Assembly: GCA_035640355.1 (NCBI GenBank)
Contig: DASQWI010000009.1
Coordinates: forward strand, 62,001-126,000
Direction: 5' to 3'
DNA: 64,000 nucleotides
DNA from: Actinomycetota bacterium
GTDB taxonomy: Bacteria > Actinomycetota > UBA4738 > HRBIN12
Both the position numbers and the translations under genes were made by a program. Of this stretch, positions 8,363-57,370 are shown one piece after another. The notes under the pieces were generated by a model that searched no databases, had not been told where the DNA came from, and saw only the letters and a list, made by a program, of their open reading frames with translations. How positions within the stretch are numbered: position 1 is the first letter of the stretch; every line of letters begins with the position of its first letter.

Positions 8363-10041
8363 GTTCTCGCTTCGGGAAGACACTCGAGCTGCGACATGAT
8401 CGCGGACGGGAACGCCGCCTGGAACACAGGGTCATCCGCTTCCGAGGCCGGTACGACCACGCCTGGCAGCTTCGTGTCGGCCTTGGTCAGCCCCATGATC
8501 CACTCGCTCATCTCCTCGAGCGTGTGACCGTTCTGGCGAAGCTCGGTCTCGTTCACGAAGATCTGTGTCGGCTGGACGAGCTCGATGAGCCGCACATCGT
8601 CCTGATCGTCGAAGCGACGCGCGAGCCCGTTGACGATCGAGGTCGTAGAGATCTGGAACGCGCCGGTGACGTCGGGGTCCGGGAGCGACCCGTGATCGGC
8701 GGTGAGGACGAACGCCCATTGACCCTCGCCCACGGTTTCGTCGAGGAACTCCACGAGGACCTGGAGCTGTTCGTCCTGCGCCTCGACCGCGTCGCGCATC
8801 TCCGGACTGTTCACCGTCCAGACGTGGCTGATGTAGTCGATCATCTTGAAGTTCACGTAGAGCAGGTCGGGGATGACGTCGTCGCCGAACCCCTCGCGTT
8901 CGATCAGCTCCATCAACACGCGCGTCTGGTAGGGGATTCGCGCGGGAGTGTCGAACCCACGAAGGAGCGGCTCGATGTCGTTGTTGCGCCACCGGCCGTC
9001 GATGCGCCCGTCGGCCGCGTCGACGGCCCGCACGTCGGCCTCGAACCCGCCGACCTCGTTCAGGTACTCGGGGAACCGGTAGTACGAACGGAGAGCAGGC
9101 GTGAGGTTCCATTCGAAACCCTCGGCGCCGAGCGTTTCGGCGCCGACCTTCTCCCGGACCACGGCGATATCCTGGTCGCCTCCGCCCCACATCGATCCGT
9201 GACCGAGCATGCCGAGATGGATCGACACCGTGCCGAGCTCGCCGACGACGGGGTCGTTGGCCATGGCCAGGTCGTATACGTCCGCGAGCGTCGGGTCGAT
9301 CAGGTAGGTGGGTCCGCGCGCCCACGGCGTGGTCAGGTCTTCGCCGATGCGCAGCCGGTGCGCCACGATGCCGTGGTTGTCAGGGAACGTGCCGGTCCCG
9401 ATCGTGGCGTGCGTCTGCGCGGTGGACGTCGGTGACGATCCAACCGTGGCGTTGTCGTACCACGTGCCGTTCGGGATGAGCGAGTCGAGGAACGGCCACG
9501 CGTTCGGCCATCGCTTCAGGACGTTTCGTCCGCCCGCGTCCCAGACGATGGTGAGGATCAGCCTCGGCGGGTCGGCGGAGCTGATGAGCGCCTCGTGCAT
9601 CGGCGAGCCGTCCGGAGTCCTGAACGGAAAGTCGAGCAGCGCCGCCTGCGTCGGCGCAACTCCGGCGAGCGTCACCGGACGCTCGACCACGCCGGCCGGA
9701 GCGATGTGCCCTTCGCCGTACCAGAACATCGGAATATCCTGCGCGTAGGGCCACGGACCGACGTGTGGAAGCCCTGAACCAACGAAGTTCGGCTCGATCG
9801 GGAGGATCTGCAGCTCGGCGCTCCTATCGTTCCGGTTGCCGCGCCACGTCGCGAGCAACCACTCGTGCGGGATCGAGCACGCGAGCTCGGCCAGCTCACC
9901 CGTCGCCGTTTGAGCCACTCCAGCGCGAGCGGCTCCTGGCTCGTCGAACGGTTGTGCCGCGCACGCCGAGACGAGGAGCGATGCGGCCGCGGCCAGCGCG
10001 AGACAGGGGGAGGCGGCCACAGACGGCATACGAAACACCAC
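8359..10041 (-). CDS. Lipoprotein phosphoesterase, alkaline phosphatase superfamily (paralog 3)
   Basis: 560 residues from GTG at 10041; an ATG at 10029 is an equally good start. It is a lipoprotein with lipobox VSAC. The catalytic domain has VWDAGG, SSPTSTAQTHATIGTG (nucleophile Thr retained), FKMIDYISHVW and TADHG. It shares with its two downstream paralogs long blocks such as the WPNAWPFLDSL region and the YLNEVGGF/DVRAVDAADG region. It is the first gene of an operon running 7 kb leftward through two paralogs, the MFS fusion and DinB. A degenerate fourth copy starts only 45 bases away on the other strand. Confidence 0.87.
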   Translation of the reverse strand: MVFRMPSVAASPCLALAAAASLLVSACAAQPFDEPGAARAGVAQTATGELAELACSIPHEWLLATWRGNRNDRSAELQILPIEPNFVGSGLPHVGPWPYAQDIPMFWYGEGHIAPAGVVERPVTLAGVAPTQAALLDFPFRTPDGSPMHEALISSADPPRLILTIVWDAGGRNVLKRWPNAWPFLDSLIPNGTWYDNATVGSSPTSTAQTHATIGTGTFPDNHGIVAHRLRIGEDLTTPWARGPTYLIDPTLADVYDLAMANDPVVGELGTVSIHLGMLGHGSMWGGGDQDIAVVREKVGAETLGAEGFEWNLTPALRSYYRFPEYLNEVGGFEADVRAVDAADGRIDGRWRNNDIEPLLRGFDTPARIPYQTRVLMELIEREGFGDDVIPDLLYVNFKMIDYISHVWTVNSPEMRDAVEAQDEQLQVLVEFLDETVGEGQWAFVLTADHGSLPDPDVTGAFQISTTSIVNGLARRFDDQDDVRLIELVQPTQIFVNETELRQNGHTLEEMSEWIMGLTKADTKLPGVVVPASEADDPVFQAAFPSAIMSQLECLPEART

Positions 10042-51151: not shown

Positions 51152-52471
51152 GTGACCGGGTACCGGCCGCTCGTCGCCGTCGTCGCGTATCACCTCGCGG
51201 ACGATCGCGTTCCCCGGTGGCCACACGGCGGATACGGGGTTCCGGGACCGTATCTCGATCGGTTGCGTGCGGCGGGCGCTCGCACCGCGATCATCTCGCC
51301 GAGCGAGAGCGGCGCCGCCGAGGAGATCCTCGAACCGTTCGACGGGCTGATGCTGGTCGGCGGCGGTGACGTGGACCCCAGCCGCTACGGACAGGAGCCG
51401 AGCGAGAACATCTACGGCGTCGAGCCCGACCGAGACGCGCTCGAGATCGACGTCCTGCACGCGGCGGACGAGCTCGGCATCCCCACGCTCTGCATCTGTC
51501 GCGGCATGCAGATCATGAACGTGGCGTTCGGCGGCACGCTCCTGCAGCACCTTCCGGAAGTTCCGGGGACCCAGGAGCACGGCACGCCGGTCGCGGACGA
51601 ACGCACCCTGCACGAGGTTCGTAGCGACGAACGGAGCCACCTGCGCGCCACGACGGGGGTCGAGGTGATCTCGTGCTCGTCACACCATCATCAAGCGCCC
51701 GACCGGATCGGTGAAGGCCTCCTCGCCACGGGATGGACGGCCGACGGCATCGTGGAGGCGATCGAACGCGAGCGCGACGACCAAGACGAGCGTCCGTACG
51801 AGGCGGGGTGGATGCTCGGCGTTCAGTGGCACCCGGAGGACACTGCTGCGAGTGATCCGGCACAGCAGTCGTTGTTCGATGCGCTGTCGAACCTGGCGCG
51901 GTGGCGTGGCTCACGCGCGAAGCCGGGCGTCCGCGGCGGACGCAACCGCGAGTACGGGCTCGTCGACTACGACACGGCGTGGCCGACGATGTTCGAGGAG
52001 GAGTCCGCGCGGATTCGCGCGGCGCTCGGTGACGTCGCCGCGCGTATCGAGCACGTCGGATCGACAGCGGTACCGGGTCTCGCCGCCAAGCCCGTGATCG
52101 ACATCCAGGTCTCGGTGCGATCGATGATGCCTCGGGACCGGTTCGTCGCTCCCCTCGTCGGACTCGGGTACGAGTTCCGGCCCGACCCCATCGACACGGA
52201 GCACGAGTACTTCAAGAAAGAAGAGAACGGGGTCCCGACGTACCAGATCCACGTGTGTCCCGTGGGAAGCGAGTGGGAACGGCGGCATCTGGCGTTCCGC
52301 GACCATCTCCGGGTGAATCCCGTCGACGCTGTTCGATACGCGGAGCTGAAGCGGCGCCTGGCGGCGGAACATCCGCGCGACATCATTGCGTACGTCGAGG
52401 GCAAGACGCCCTTCATCCGCGAGGTCGAGCGGCAACGGGTCGGTTCAGCGGAGCGAAGGCTCGGGTCGTAG
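51152..52471 (+). CDS. PuuD-like gamma-glutamyl hydrolase fused to a GrpB domain
   Basis: 439 residues, two domains. Residues 1-255 are a peptidase C26 class I amidotransferase domain: VGGGDVDPSRYG, nucleophile Cys116 in LCICRGMQIMN, HHHQAPD, and His227-Glu229 in VQWHPED, as in gamma-glutamyl-GABA hydrolase PuuD. Residues about 268-430 are a GrpB (UPF0157) nucleotidyltransferase-fold domain: VDYDTAW, EHVGSTAVPGLAAKPVIDI and the final helices. The frame is continuous. GrpB domains usually stand alone or join CoaE, so the fusion is unusual. It closes the aminotransferase operon. Confidence 0.9.
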   Translation: MTGYRPLVAVVAYHLADDRVPRWPHGGYGVPGPYLDRLRAAGARTAIISPSESGAAEEILEPFDGLMLVGGGDVDPSRYGQEPSENIYGVEPDRDALEIDVLHAADELGIPTLCICRGMQIMNVAFGGTLLQHLPEVPGTQEHGTPVADERTLHEVRSDERSHLRATTGVEVISCSSHHHQAPDRIGEGLLATGWTADGIVEAIERERDDQDERPYEAGWMLGVQWHPEDTAASDPAQQSLFDALSNLARWRGSRAKPGVRGGRNREYGLVDYDTAWPTMFEEESARIRAALGDVAARIEHVGSTAVPGLAAKPVIDIQVSVRSMMPRDRFVAPLVGLGYEFRPDPIDTEHEYFKKEENGVPTYQIHVCPVGSEWERRHLAFRDHLRVNPVDAVRYAELKRRLAAEHPRDIIAYVEGKTPFIREVERQRVGSAERRLGS

Positions 52472-52659: not shown

Positions 52660-54030
52660 ATGAAAGCTTCGCGGCTCGTCAGGTTGGCTGCGACAGTTGC
52701 GCTCACGTTGACCGCGGCCCTAACGACGGTCGCAGCGCCGGCGGCGAGCGCGGATGGCGTTCCAGATCTCTCGACGAGGGAGGCCATCGAAGCCTACCTC
52801 ATCTCCATTGGCGTCGATCCAGCGGACGCCGTCTGGCAGGAGGGCCGCCGCAACTACGCCGGTCCCAGGTGCCCCGGCGCCGAGTGGAACTGCGTCGCCG
52901 CGACCACTCCCATCGTCCAGATCGCCAACGCCGGTGGATTCAACCTGTTCGCGTGCGGTGGCCTCGATTGCGTGGTGGTCCAGGTGGCGCTGAACGGGGG
53001 GCAGAACGGCAGCGCCTGCGACCGCGGAGACAACCAGAGCAACAGTCAGGTTCAGGTCTGTGACATCACGCAGGTCAACGGGGGAGACAACCCGAACAGC
53101 ACGAACGCGGCCGCCATCGCGCAGAATATCCAACAGAACGGGGGGTCTACCCAGAAGGCGAGGCAGGTCGCCCGCATCAGGCAGGAGAACACCCTCGGGA
53201 AGAACATCTCGACGATTAACCAGGTGATCGGCCAGTCCCAGAACGCTAGGGGCGGGACCACAATCATGCAATCGCAGGAGGCCCATCAGGGCGCCACGGT
53301 GAACCAGGGGACAACCGAGGGCGGGAACGTATCTAACGTCACCCAGCGCCAGGACCAGTCCCAGCGCGCCTCTAGAGTCGCCACGCTGCTCACGCAGGAG
53401 CAGAACGCGGCGCTCGGAACCGACTTCAATCTGCTGCTTTGCGACGACCCTGACGATTTAATGTTCGATCAGGACAAGAACCAGTGTGCTGACGTGGACC
53501 AGGTTTCGGTGAGCGGAACACTCAAGTCCAACCTACGCCAGCTAATCAACGAGACCCAGAGCGCTTCGGGGTCACCGAGCGTGACCCAGGTCCAAGGAAC
53601 GGCACCGACGACGGGCGGTCAGAACGGAACCGTTGACCATCTCAGTTCTGGCCTGGCGGCGAACGTCGCGGACGAGGACATGTTCCAGAGTCAAACGGCG
53701 GCCGGCGCCACGACGCTCTCCCAGACCAAGTTCACCGGTGACCCGCGATGCTGTCAGACACAGGGGACGAATACGGGCGACACATCGAGCATCGACCAGA
53801 CGACGAATCAGTTCGCTTCCGATCCTGATGCGTTACAGAACGCGACATTGTCAAGCCACTGCGTCACGACTGGGAACTGCGACGTGATGCAGTCCTCCAC
53901 GATCAACGGAGTGACCAATACGGAAGAGTGCACGGGATCCGTCTGTGAGGAGACGCTCACCTGCACGCAGGCCGGAGGCGAGGGCGGCTGCTCCACAACC
54001 GAACCGTCGCCGGGGCCCGACCTCACGTAG
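52660..54030 (+). CDS. Secreted Q/N-rich repeat protein, possible fibre-forming or surface protein
   Basis: 456 residues. A clear Sec signal peptide ends near APAASA (about 31). The N-terminal part (about 35-120) has a DLSTREAIEAYLISIGV helix and paired Cys. From about 125 the chain is rich in Gln, Asn, Ser and Thr, with a degenerate repeat around Q-x-Q-x-A (GQSQNA, QSQEA, DQSQRA, QEQNA, QSQTA). Several copies are followed by GAT and another Gln about seven residues later. At least fifteen Cys suggest disulfides outside the cell. Codons are visibly less GC-rich than in neighbours. No known family is recognised; the Gln ladder recalls curlin-like or beta-solenoid proteins. Confidence 0.8.
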   Translation: MKASRLVRLAATVALTLTAALTTVAAPAASADGVPDLSTREAIEAYLISIGVDPADAVWQEGRRNYAGPRCPGAEWNCVAATTPIVQIANAGGFNLFACGGLDCVVVQVALNGGQNGSACDRGDNQSNSQVQVCDITQVNGGDNPNSTNAAAIAQNIQQNGGSTQKARQVARIRQENTLGKNISTINQVIGQSQNARGGTTIMQSQEAHQGATVNQGTTEGGNVSNVTQRQDQSQRASRVATLLTQEQNAALGTDFNLLLCDDPDDLMFDQDKNQCADVDQVSVSGTLKSNLRQLINETQSASGSPSVTQVQGTAPTTGGQNGTVDHLSSGLAANVADEDMFQSQTAAGATTLSQTKFTGDPRCCQTQGTNTGDTSSIDQTTNQFASDPDALQNATLSSHCVTTGNCDVMQSSTINGVTNTEECTGSVCEETLTCTQAGGEGGCSTTEPSPGPDLT

Positions 54031-54042
54031 AAGATCGGTACA

Positions 54043-54071
54043 CGAGGGGGCCGGCTCAGCCGGTCCCCTCG
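54043..54071. terminator. Bidirectional terminator hairpin overlapping the cyclase stop codon
   Basis: CGAGGGGGCCGGCT (54043-54056) pairs with AGCCGGTCCCCTCG (54058-54071) around a single C; 13 Watson-Crick pairs and one G-T. The stop codon of the minus-strand cyclase gene (54056-54058) sits at the loop. It separates two convergent genes only 25 bases apart. Confidence 0.75.
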
Positions 54072-57000
54072 CCGTACGCGACGGCAGCCGCGTCGGCGAG
54101 AGCGATCAGGGTCCGGGCCTCCGTTCCTTGAAGGGAGGCCCGGACGTCGTTGAAGTGACGCCTCGCCTCGTCGGCCCGCCCCTGCTTGCCGAGGATCCTT
54201 GCGCACGAGATGCGAGCCTCGGCCAGCTCGATGGGCACGCTCTGTTCCGCCATGAGCTCGAGCGCTTGAGCCATCTTCGCAGTCGCCGATTCGTCGCCTT
54301 CCGCTGCGGAGATCAGAGCGGCCGACAGGAGCGACTCGGCCCTTGCGAACGCGTCTTCCTCGGGGACGGCTTCGGCCGCGACCGAAGCAGCAGCCCACGC
54401 GGCGTCCAACTCTCCGTCGAGCAACAAGACCTCGACGAGATACCGGTTGGTCTCGACGAGCAACCAGCCACCCACGTCGACAGCCATTGGTACTGCCTCC
54501 CGGATCCATCGCGCCGCCTCGTCAAGTGCGCCGCGGGTGAGCGTGAGCCTGCCGAGCAGCAGCAGGTTCTGGATCTGGAAGTACCGGTCGCCGGTGCGTT
54601 CGAGCCATTCGGCCGCGCGGGCCGCGAGCGGCTCGGCGTCCACCGGCCGACCGAGATAGTTCCTTACGTAGGCCAGGAGGTACGCAGCTCGAGCGTCGTC
54701 GCGAAGGCTGCCCGTCTGTTCGGCCAGCCGAGCGCATCGTTCGAGGTGGGCCTCTGCGTCGCGGAGCCTTCCCGCCGTCGCCAGGATCGTTCCGATCCGG
54801 AGGTGGCCCTCGATGCGAAGCGAGAGGTCGCCCAACTCGTCCGCGGTCTCGAGGCCCGACGAGAGATCGCCGACGGCGCCATCGACCTCACCTTCGAAAT
54901 CTGCTCGGATCGCGGCGGACTCGTACGCGGTCCGGACCTTCAGCCATGGATCTGCGATCGCGTCGGCGATCGCGGCGGCCTCCGATACATGACCGCGGGC
55001 CTGCGTGGCCTGGCCGCGCTTCTGAGCCACGTTGGCCAGGCCGACCAGCGCACGACCTTGCAGGTCGAGACGACCGAACGAGACGGCCTCGTCGGCGACG
55101 CGGAGGAGGACTTCCGTCGCCTCCTTCGACTGACCGAGGGCGATGAGCGTTCGGGACCGGCGCAGACGAAGTTCGGTCACCGCTTCCTCGTGTTCCTCGC
55201 CGACCAGGTCGAGGGCTCGAGCGAAGAAGCGATCGGCTTCGGCGGTTCCCTCGCGACGCTCGGCTTTCTCAGCAGCCCGGGACAGCGCCTCCGCGGCGCG
55301 CCGGCGTGATTCCGCGGGTGCTCCCGGCCCAAGCTCTCGTGCCAGCGTGCACGCCGACTCGAGGTGGTACGCGACGATCTCGATCAGTTCGTCGTCGGTC
55401 CCCGAGAGCCGGGAGACCCAGTCGGCGCATCTGGCGTGGAGCTCCGATCGCCTCTTCTTCGGCAGTCGGCTGTACGCGACGTCCCGGATGAGTGCGTGCT
55501 TGAACGCGAACTCTCGTTCGTCGGCGATGCTCGACTCCGGATGCGGACGCACGAGATCGCGCGCCTCCAACCGGCCGATGGCGTCGAGGACGTCGCCGCC
55601 ACCCCGCAGATCGCTCACCAGCCCAGACCAGAACACCAACCCCACCACAGAGGAAAGTTGCGCGACGCGACGGTCGTCGTCCGGCAGGAGATCCAGACGC
55701 GAGCCGATGAGTCCGTGGATGCTCCCGGGCACTGGCACGCTCTCCTCGAGATGAAGACCGCGTTCGTCGAGCAGCCCGGCGTCCGCGAGCATCCCCACCA
55801 TCTCCTCGAGGAAGAGCGGGTTGCCCGCGGCAGCACGAAGGACCGCGTTGAGCGGCTCCCGCCCACTCACTCCCGCCGGGAGAAGCGTCCCGATCAACGA
55901 CTCGCTCTCCTCGGTCGAGAGCGCGTCGAGCAGGATCAGCCGTCGATCTCCGTTGGCCCGGGCCGAGCTCCATGAGTCCGCGAGCTCCGGGCGTCCCGAC
56001 CCGAGAACGAGGATGGCTCCGGTGGCATCGTCGGTCACGAGATCCAGCAGCTCGAGCAACGTCGGCTCCGCCCAGTGAAGGTCCTCGAACAGGAGGACGA
56101 GCGGGGACGCGGATGCCTTCAGCTCGAACAGCCGGCGGATCCCCCAATGAAGCTCACCGCGCGTGATCGTCGCGGCGCGATACGTGCCCCTTGGCGTCGC
56201 CGGAACCGCCAGCAACGACGAGAGCGCGGTGGCGATGGTCTGCAGTTCGTCGCGGTCCGTCGTCCGAAGCGCCTGGACGAGGCGCCCGAGCTTCGCCGAC
56301 GTCGTGGCCTCGTCGTCGTCGTGCAGGATGCCGGCCGAGCCCATCACCATCTCGATGACCGGCCAGTACGTGATGCCCTCCCCGTACGGCAGGCAACGCC
56401 CGCGCAGCAGGCCGGCAGCCGTGCCCATCCGGTCGACGAACTCACCGAGCAGACGCGTCTTCCCGATGCCAGGAGGGCCGAGCACCAGCGCTCGAGCAGG
56501 CCGGGCTTTTCGCCGCACGCCGCTCCACAGATCCATGAGTTCGCCCAGCTCGGAGACCCGGCCGATGAGCGGGGTCGTGCCGATCGGTCGCTCCGTCGGA
56601 AGCGGCGAGACCTCGACGACCTCCCAGACAGTCAGGGGTTCGGACTTCCCCTTCGCCGTGACCGGGTCGGCAGGACGGCTCACGACGGCATTACGCGTGG
56701 CGCGGTACGTCTCCTTCGCCATGTAGATGAAGCCCGCCGGCGCGGCGCTCATGAGCCGCGCTGCGGTATTGGTCGTATCCCCCATGGCCGTGTAGTCGCG
56801 GGCCTCGTCCGGTCCGATCAGACCGGCCATCGTCTCGCCGGTGTTGATGCCAACGTGGAGCTCGAGTCTCTTCGGAGCTCCCTCGACTGCGGCGATGCGC
56901 TGCCGCATCGCGACGGCCGCTCGAACCGCGCGCTCGGGGTCGTCCTCGTGAGCGATTGGCGCTCCGAAGAGCGCCATGATCGCGTCACCCATCACGCTGG

Positions 57001-57370
57001 AAACGGTGCCACCGAACCGACGCACTTCCGCGCTCATCAGTCCGGCGCAGTGCTCTGCCAACGCTTTCACGGCTTCGGGATCCATGCCCTCGGACATCGA
57101 GGTGAACCCCGCGAGGTCGGCGAAGAGAACCGTCACCAGTCGCCGTTCCTCCTCCGCACGGGAAGGTGTCGTGGCGCCGACCGTGGCCGGCTGCATGCGG
57201 TCGGCCCGCGCGCCATCGTCGAGCTGAGCCCCGCACTGGCCGCAGAAGCGCTCGTCCGCCTCGTTCGAAGTGCCACAAACGGAGCAAAGGAGCGAGAGCG
57301 CCGCTCCGCAGCCCGAGCAGAACTTTCGACCGTCGCGGTTGTCCGTACCGCAGCTCGAGCAACGCATCAC
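54056..57370 (-). CDS. Class III adenylate/guanylate cyclase with AAA ATPase and TPR regions
   Basis: 1104 residues. Two zinc ribbons lie at the N terminus (Cys 4, 7, 18, 21 and 29, 32, 43, 46). A class III cyclase domain (about 78-250) has metal Asp85 in FADLAGFTS and Asp129 in VMGDAIMALFG, plus the TAMGDTTNTAARL helix. An ATPase of the AAA_16/STAND type has Walker A GPPGIGKT (298-305) and Walker B-like LVLLFEDLHW. From about 690 to the end there are TPR-like helical pairs. GTG at 57370 and ATG at 57367 are equivalent starts. Such proteins are multidomain signalling ATPases; the input signal is unknown. Confidence 0.9.
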   Translation of the reverse strand: MMRCSSCGTDNRDGRKFCSGCGAALSLLCSVCGTSNEADERFCGQCGAQLDDGARADRMQPATVGATTPSRAEEERRLVTVLFADLAGFTSMSEGMDPEAVKALAEHCAGLMSAEVRRFGGTVSSVMGDAIMALFGAPIAHEDDPERAVRAAVAMRQRIAAVEGAPKRLELHVGINTGETMAGLIGPDEARDYTAMGDTTNTAARLMSAAPAGFIYMAKETYRATRNAVVSRPADPVTAKGKSEPLTVWEVVEVSPLPTERPIGTTPLIGRVSELGELMDLWSGVRRKARPARALVLGPPGIGKTRLLGEFVDRMGTAAGLLRGRCLPYGEGITYWPVIEMVMGSAGILHDDDEATTSAKLGRLVQALRTTDRDELQTIATALSSLLAVPATPRGTYRAATITRGELHWGIRRLFELKASASPLVLLFEDLHWAEPTLLELLDLVTDDATGAILVLGSGRPELADSWSSARANGDRRLILLDALSTEESESLIGTLLPAGVSGREPLNAVLRAAAGNPLFLEEMVGMLADAGLLDERGLHLEESVPVPGSIHGLIGSRLDLLPDDDRRVAQLSSVVGLVFWSGLVSDLRGGGDVLDAIGRLEARDLVRPHPESSIADEREFAFKHALIRDVAYSRLPKKRRSELHARCADWVSRLSGTDDELIEIVAYHLESACTLARELGPGAPAESRRRAAEALSRAAEKAERREGTAEADRFFARALDLVGEEHEEAVTELRLRRSRTLIALGQSKEATEVLLRVADEAVSFGRLDLQGRALVGLANVAQKRGQATQARGHVSEAAAIADAIADPWLKVRTAYESAAIRADFEGEVDGAVGDLSSGLETADELGDLSLRIEGHLRIGTILATAGRLRDAEAHLERCARLAEQTGSLRDDARAAYLLAYVRNYLGRPVDAEPLAARAAEWLERTGDRYFQIQNLLLLGRLTLTRGALDEAARWIREAVPMAVDVGGWLLVETNRYLVEVLLLDGELDAAWAAASVAAEAVPEEDAFARAESLLSAALISAAEGDESATAKMAQALELMAEQSVPIELAEARISCARILGKQGRADEARRHFNDVRASLQGTEARTLIALADAAAVAYGEGTG

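What the first reader, a model, noticed from the sequence alone, without database searches (positions are those of the whole stretch)
52660..54030. Secreted Gln/Asn-rich repeat protein with a Q-x-Q-x-A ladder
After a signal peptide the protein carries repeated Q-x-Q-x-A elements, several followed by GAT and a further Gln, with at least fifteen Cys and no known domain. Composition and base use differ from neighbours. The regular Gln/Asn ladder resembles curlin-type amyloid or beta-solenoid proteins and could form extracellular fibres, but no curli export genes are present. It may be a new family of actinobacterial surface fibre.
Basis: partly seen in the sequence, partly recalled or inferred. 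Interest (0 to 1): 0.62.

Follow-up and report, generated by a model that had tools for sequence, protein, structure and literature searches.

The report
Secreted Gln-ladder protein with cyclase partner
A secreted soil-bacterium protein built from 41-residue glutamine-rich repeats, probably a stacked beta-strand rod reminiscent of curli fibres, is found side by side with one particular signalling enzyme in distantly related bacteria of two phyla, which points to a two-gene system that has not been named.

Summary
Window 52660-54030 (+) encodes a 456-residue exported-looking protein with a real repeat. The unit is 41 residues: strand A (QxAxQxAx[VI]xQ), six residues, strand B (NxSx[VI]xQx3Qx3A). 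Self-alignment beats all of 200 shuffles. AlphaFold2 gives a beta-solenoid-like core for residues ~41-240; the C-terminal part is low confidence. Foldseek finds nothing significant; the realignment puts curli CsgA (Z 14.2) level with SufB (Z 14.2).

It is not a curlin: no Pfam match, no profile similarity to CsgA/CsgB, and a 41- not 22-residue unit.

Six relatives were found, in Actinomycetota and Chloroflexota, sharing a Cys/Trp head.

The main result was not in the finding. In 6 of 6 loci with sequence beyond the gene's 3' end, the next gene is a zinc-ribbon/class III cyclase/AAA ATPase/TPR protein. These cyclases form one clade (100/100). Among 396 sampled Actinomycetota, the three ladder genomes hold the three best cyclase matches.

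Best reading: an extracellular beta-solenoid surface or matrix protein working with its own cyclase regulator. The fold is predicted, the pairing shown; fibre formation and regulation are inferred.

The parts
52660..54030 (+). Ladder protein gene, 456 aa, secreted-looking
   Evidence: family of seven
52660..52752 (+). Putative Sec signal peptide (residues 1-31, read by eye)
   Evidence: no predictor run
52765..53061 (+). Conserved head (about residues 36-134): one helix plus strands, NYAGPxCPGxxWxC; Cys71, 78, 120, 134 and Trp76 invariant in seven members
   Evidence: pLDDT 81-89 for residues 41-120
53152..53184 (+). Strand A, copy 1: QKARQVARIRQ (165-175)
53203..53247 (+). Strand B, copy 1: NISTINQVIGQSQNA (182-196)
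53275..53307 (+). Strand A, copy 2: QEAHQGATVNQ (206-216), 41 residues after copy 1
53326..53370 (+). Strand B, copy 2: NVSNVTQRQDQSQRA (223-237), 41 residues after copy 1
53710..54027 (+). C-terminal tail (about residues 351-456), Cys-rich, low model confidence
   Evidence: pLDDT < 50 in most of 351-456
54043..54072 (.). Strong hairpin at the convergent junction, overlapping the 3' end of the cyclase gene; terminator-like but without a T run
   Evidence: -36.2 kcal/mol, z -5.06
54056..57370 (-). Partner gene, 1104 aa: double zinc ribbon, class III cyclase, AAA_16 ATPase, TPR

Best explanation
The gene encodes an exported surface or matrix protein. A (probably disulfide-bonded) N-terminal head carries a beta-solenoid of 41-residue rungs, each with two long strands whose inward faces stack Gln/Asn ladders with Ala/Val/Ile, like a wider form of the curli cross-section. 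Subunits then assemble or display as an extracellular rod or fibre, held by a variable C-terminal part. The neighbouring cytosolic zinc-ribbon/cyclase/AAA/TPR protein is its dedicated regulator, and the two genes are kept or moved together as a module. Shown: gene, 41-residue repeat, relatives, adjacency to a monophyletic cyclase. Predicted: beta-solenoid, export. Inferred: fibre formation, regulation by the cyclase.
For: Repeat of 41 residues, with QxAx[QE]xAx[VI]xQ twice at a spacing of 41 in 5 of 7 members, 40 in one more under a relaxed pattern, and none in G060. AlphaFold2: all-beta core, blocks of ten at pLDDT 70-91 over residues 41-240 except one at 58; similar core for the Chloroflexota member. 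Realignment: curli CsgA 8c50 Z 14.2, tied with SufB 5awg Z 14.2 for the window model; 8c50 Z 11.7, second, for the other. Partner: 6 of 6 loci with sequence past the ladder 3' end. Unbroken ladder-adjacent cyclases score 743-844 bits, 43-47% identity, against at most 394 bits for other paralogues of the same five genomes. Clade support 100/100 among 25 rows. Co-occurrence: 3 of 3 ladder genomes among only 4 of 396 passing E <= 1e-130.
Against: Foldseek gives no significant structural match for either model (best E 0.67 and 1.4), and the Z values stand near what repeats can give by arrangement alone (note). Mean pLDDT is only 59.7 and 62.7, on 7 sequences. A folded head may cap one end and block polymerisation. 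No wall anchor or export partner was identified. In the window the usual adenine-binding Lys of the cyclase (recalled) is Ser, so its product is doubtful. Convergent genes are not co-transcribed; a regulatory link is inference. G060 is too diverged to show the repeat (p 0.38). A statistic on alternating inward faces was not significant (p 0.10).
Confidence: 0.42

Rival explanations
1. A monomeric, capped beta-solenoid adhesin or ligand-binding surface protein that never polymerises; the cyclase pairing still matters.
For: A folded, Cys-containing head precedes the solenoid. Two relatives carry extra C-terminal domains: PKD in G060 and a stretch weakly like DUF3344 in G160. PMC10192328 (passage read) says blocking domains stop other beta-solenoids from polymerising. 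Tailspikes, UpaB and an antifreeze protein also appear among the realignments.
Against: Gln/Asn ladders with N-x-psi-x-psi-x-Q stretches resemble the polymerising curli core.
Confidence: 0.33
2. The two genes travel together (for example in one transferred segment) without acting on each other.
For: Patchy distribution (3 of 396 Actinomycetota; 4 of 177 in the Chloroflexota class) and convergent orientation in five of six loci. Ladder and cyclase share slightly low fourfold GC.
Against: Persistence across two phyla and three Actinomycetota classes, one rearrangement to same-strand order in G060 with the pair still adjacent, and the clade-specific partner. Ten cyclase loci of other clades have no ladder gene in the stretches held.
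Confidence: 0.15
3. The cyclase/AAA/TPR protein is a conflict or defence sensor and the ladder protein its secreted effector or target.
For: The cyclase domain has weak matches to Pycsar cyclase models. PMC7159879 (passages read) describes cNMP cyclases in NTP-dependent conflict systems.
Against: Those cyclase matches reflect the shared domain. No PADLOC family matches the ladder protein, and no known effector was seen beside it.
Confidence: 0.05
4. Low-complexity, mostly disordered secreted Gln/Asn-rich protein; the repeat is compositional.
For: About 38% of residues of the window model lie under pLDDT 50 (173 of 456).
Against: Fixed 41-residue register, invariant Q/G/N positions across two phyla, confident beta core.
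Confidence: 0.05

Closest known systems
Curlin CsgA/CsgB (curli)
   Same: Secreted, Gln/Asn ladder, N-x-psi-x-psi-x-Q stretches (3 in the window; 5 and 6 in E. coli CsgA and CsgB), predicted two-sheet beta-solenoid.
   Different: 41-residue unit with strands of 11-15 residues instead of about 22-23 residues with 7-residue motifs (PMC10192328); Cys/Trp head; no profile similarity; different neighbour.
SufB/SufD-type flattened beta-helix
   Same: Realignment of the window model with the same Z as curli and a lower rmsd (5awg, Z 14.2, rmsd 3.7, 211 residues).
   Different: Cytosolic Fe-S assembly proteins (recalled); no sequence similarity found.
Chaplins and rodlins of Streptomyces
   Same: Exported actinobacterial amyloid-type surface proteins; chaplins have GN motifs and a Cys pair (PMC7766987, passages read).
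   Different: Chaplins are highly hydrophobic; no Pfam match of the ladder protein.
Class III cyclase with AAA and TPR (TOMM kinase/cyclase fusion TIGR03903 and related)
   Same: Partner has cyclase, AAA_16 and TPR; TIGR03903 aligned over residues 53-686.
   Different: 218 bits against a cut-off of 705.75; own clade with zinc ribbon, tied to the ladder gene.

Membership tests
Curlin (CsgA) | Match to a curated curlin repeat model | tested here: not met
   Pfam scan, 0 families for the window protein at E <= 10; no curlin match for four Chloroflexota members. That Pfam holds a curlin model is recalled.
Curlin (CsgA) | Repeat of about 22-23 residues with two N-x-psi-x-psi-x-Q motifs | tested here: not met
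   Offset 41 in the window, 40-47 in five others, 38 not significant in G060; CsgB control 22, CsgA control 45. The strict motif alone is enriched in 2 of 7 members.
Curlin (CsgA) | Sequence-profile similarity to CsgA/CsgB | tested here: not met
   hhalign probability 0.2%
Curlin (CsgA) | Beta-solenoid fold | tested here: inconclusive
   Predicted all-beta solenoid-like core; Foldseek not significant; 8c50 Z 14.2 and 11.7 in the second look
Curlin (CsgA) | csg export genes (CsgG and others) | not tested
   No genome-wide search was made for them
Curlin (CsgA) | Amyloid fibres | not testable with these tools
   Needs purified protein
Class III nucleotide cyclase (partner) | Cyclase domain with two metal Asp and catalytic Asn/Arg (residue roles recalled) | tested here: met
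   PF00211 75 bits against cut-off 21.9; Asp85, Asp129, Asn201, Arg205 invariant in three proteins
Class III nucleotide cyclase (partner) | Adenine-selecting Lys (recalled; marks adenylate cyclases, not the whole class) | tested here: not met
   Ser in the window; Lys in G160, G060 and G396
TOMM kinase/cyclase fusion (TIGR03903) | Score above curated cut-off | tested here: not met
   218.3 against 705.75 bits
Pycsar cyclase (PycC) | Cyclase of the Pycsar family with a cognate effector | tested here: inconclusive
   Domain-level matches down to E 2.8e-17; no effector sought beyond the neighbouring genes

The most novel reading that the evidence does not exclude
A curli-independent extracellular amyloid-type fibre of soil bacteria, in which each solenoid rung is about twice as wide as a curlin rung (41 residues, two long Gln-ladder strands), produced under control of a dedicated cyclic-nucleotide enzyme with which it has spread between Actinomycetota and Chloroflexota.
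Probability: 0.2. Interest if true: 0.82.

Novelty: new variant of a known kind. Interest (0 to 1): 0.56.

Why it matters
Functional amyloids outside the known groups are found mostly by similarity to a few prototypes. This family escapes those models, has a different rung length, and comes with a clade-specific signalling partner, so both a new fibre architecture and a cyclic-nucleotide-linked matrix system could be tested directly in two genes. It also gives a function lead for one clade of the many cyclase/AAA/TPR proteins of these bacteria.

Tried and rejected
Full-length searches were too weak. In 100 relatives only the window's own genome and a 24%-identity fragment in G044 (E 0.005) passed; the fragment's locus, L002, was not matched by the ladder profile. 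The first genome-contig scan found none. The head-domain search listed 14 of 396 genomes at E <= 0.01; only 3 survived the profile at E <= 0.001, the other 11 are taken as chance. Class-wide searches added none: for the window's class with the head of the protein, 3 of 27 listed, two of them at E 0.003-0.005 and not confirmed; with the profile, 1 of 24 and 1 of 3. Phages: no match. Plasmids with the G160 protein: one weak DUF3344 match. Viral contigs: none.

Curlin membership was rejected. Simple Q autocorrelation and the inward-face statistic were not significant. The motif patterns were chosen after seeing the repeats, so their shuffle frequencies are not independent tests; the self-alignment test needed no chosen pattern. 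The ladder tree is unresolved, so agreement with the cyclase tree could not be tested. L026 is cut inside the ladder gene and says nothing on the partner; its genome G533 showed no cyclase of the clade (best 38%). The cyclases of L024 and L025 were left out of the tree because they are fragments, so four of the six partner proteins were in it.

Papers: search listings; passages only of PMC10192328, PMC7766987 and PMC7159879. None of the listings or passages seen describes this pair; this is not a claim about all literature.

Full report
Observation. Window 52660-54030 (+) encodes a 456-residue protein with a leader read by eye as a Sec signal peptide and a GGAGGG stretch just upstream of the ATG. 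It has 16 Cys, 9.9% Gln and 7.5% Asn. Five Q-x-Q-x-A elements are present against 0.42 expected, none of 2000 shuffles reaching five. Pfam finds nothing at E <= 10, NCBIfam nothing relevant, and the sequences of solved structures nothing significant (profile).

The repeat. Simple autocorrelation was weak. Ungapped self-alignment gives offset 41 in the window (score 66; best of 200 shuffles 64), and offsets of 40-47 in five of the six relatives aligned; the sixth, G060, is not significant. In the window each 41-residue unit is QxAxQxAx[VI]xQ, six residues, NxSx[VI]xQxxxQxxxA, then a short loop; both strands recur at exactly 41 residues. Q-x-Q-x-A lies where strand B ends (192, 233) or strand A begins (204). 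E. coli CsgA and CsgB, run as controls, show offsets 45 and 22 and no such strands.

Relatives. A head-domain search of 396 Actinomycetota genomes and a three-row profile leave 3 of 396: the window's genome, G160 and G060. A genome-contig scan returned six loci: G160 (Actinomycetota bacterium 0813_bin28), G060 (Actinomycetes bacterium LS_FP_2_bin.162) and four Chloroflexi MAGs. A seven-row profile finds 4 of 177 genomes in the class of one of these, the same four. That makes seven ladder genomes in all, the window's included. Invariant in all seven: NxAGP, CPGxxW, four Cys, and Q/G/N positions along the ladder.

The partner. Directly 3' of the ladder gene lies a gene for a zinc-ribbon, class III cyclase, AAA_16 and TPR protein (for the window, G160 and G060). 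It is there in the window (25 bases between the stops), G160, G060, L025 and L027. In L024 the 205 bases left on the contig encode its C-terminus on the opposite strand, and another contig of that genome holds its first 115 residues at 88% identity. That is 6 of 6 loci with readable sequence; L026 ends inside the ladder gene. Five are convergent, G060 is same-strand. Outer neighbours differ between the loci as far as I can tell by eye; those of the window were identified by Pfam. The L025 and L027 copies look broken: an unknown base in L025, a frame change in L027.

Specificity. With the window partner as query, the unbroken ladder-adjacent cyclases score 743-844 bits; the best other cyclase in the same five genomes scores 394. 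At E <= 1e-130, 4 of 396 Actinomycetota genomes pass: the three ladder genomes and G017 (451 bits). Given the window's own genome, the chance that both other ladder genomes fall among the three others is 3/77,815 by hand, ignoring kinship. Ten cyclase loci of other clades (G017, and nine loci of eight Chloroflexota-class genomes) have no ladder gene in the stretches held, some of them short contigs. In a tree of 25 rows the four ladder-adjacent cyclases form one group, support 100/100.

Structure. AlphaFold2 on seven sequences: mean pLDDT 62.7 and 59.7, but blocks of about 70-91 across most of residues 41-240 of the window model, all beta after a short helix. Foldseek gives no significant match. 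In the second look the window model aligns best with Pontibacter curli CsgA 8c50 (Z 14.2, rmsd 8.5, 227 residues) and SufB 5awg (Z 14.2, rmsd 3.7, 211); the Chloroflexota model with 4dn7 (Z 14.5) and 8c50 (Z 11.7). Repeats can reach Z 13 by arrangement alone (note), so this supports a beta-solenoid, not kinship with curlin.

Mechanism. PMC10192328 (passages) describes the curlin motif as N-x-psi-x-psi-x-Q with inward Gln/Asn ladders. The window has three such stretches (mean 0.64 in shuffles, p 0.026), G160 four (p 0.0025), the other five members no significant excess. I propose a wider solenoid of the same principle, exported, capped by the head, attached through a variable tail, and controlled by the partner. 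Export, fibre formation and control are inferred. In the window the cyclase has Ser where G160, G060 and G396 have the Lys recalled to select adenine, so its product is uncertain; P-loop and metal Asp are present.

Verdict. It works like a curli-type beta-solenoid at most; it is not a curlin by the tests made. The new and better supported part is the conserved two-gene module.

Noticed in passing
window 54056-57370 (-): The window's cyclase domain has Ser (GGTVSSVMGD) where G160, G060 and G396 have Lys, the residue recalled to select adenine; possibly altered specificity or a non-catalytic cyclase.
   Followed up: partly
window 54043-54072; L017 around 9217-9245: Strong hairpins at the convergent junction of ladder and cyclase genes: z -5.06 in the window; in G160 a hairpin-like stretch with a T run is visible in the sequence, not folded.
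   Followed up: partly
window 51152-52471 (+): Single ORF fusing Peptidase_C26 (residues 6-229) and GrpB (270-427).
   Followed up: no
L027 1681-4833 and L025 3490-5699: The cyclase genes of two Chloroflexota relatives look broken: a frame change within the TPR region in L027, an unknown base in L025; assembly error or decay not separated.
   Followed up: partly
L026 6-3356 (-): Beside the truncated ladder gene a 1117-residue stretch with Amidase_2 and Ig-like domains; another large exported-looking protein.
   Followed up: no
L017 7106-9202 and L018 4958-7258: Two relatives extend the ladder with other C-terminal parts: a stretch weakly like DUF3344 in G160 and PKD in G060.
   Followed up: partly
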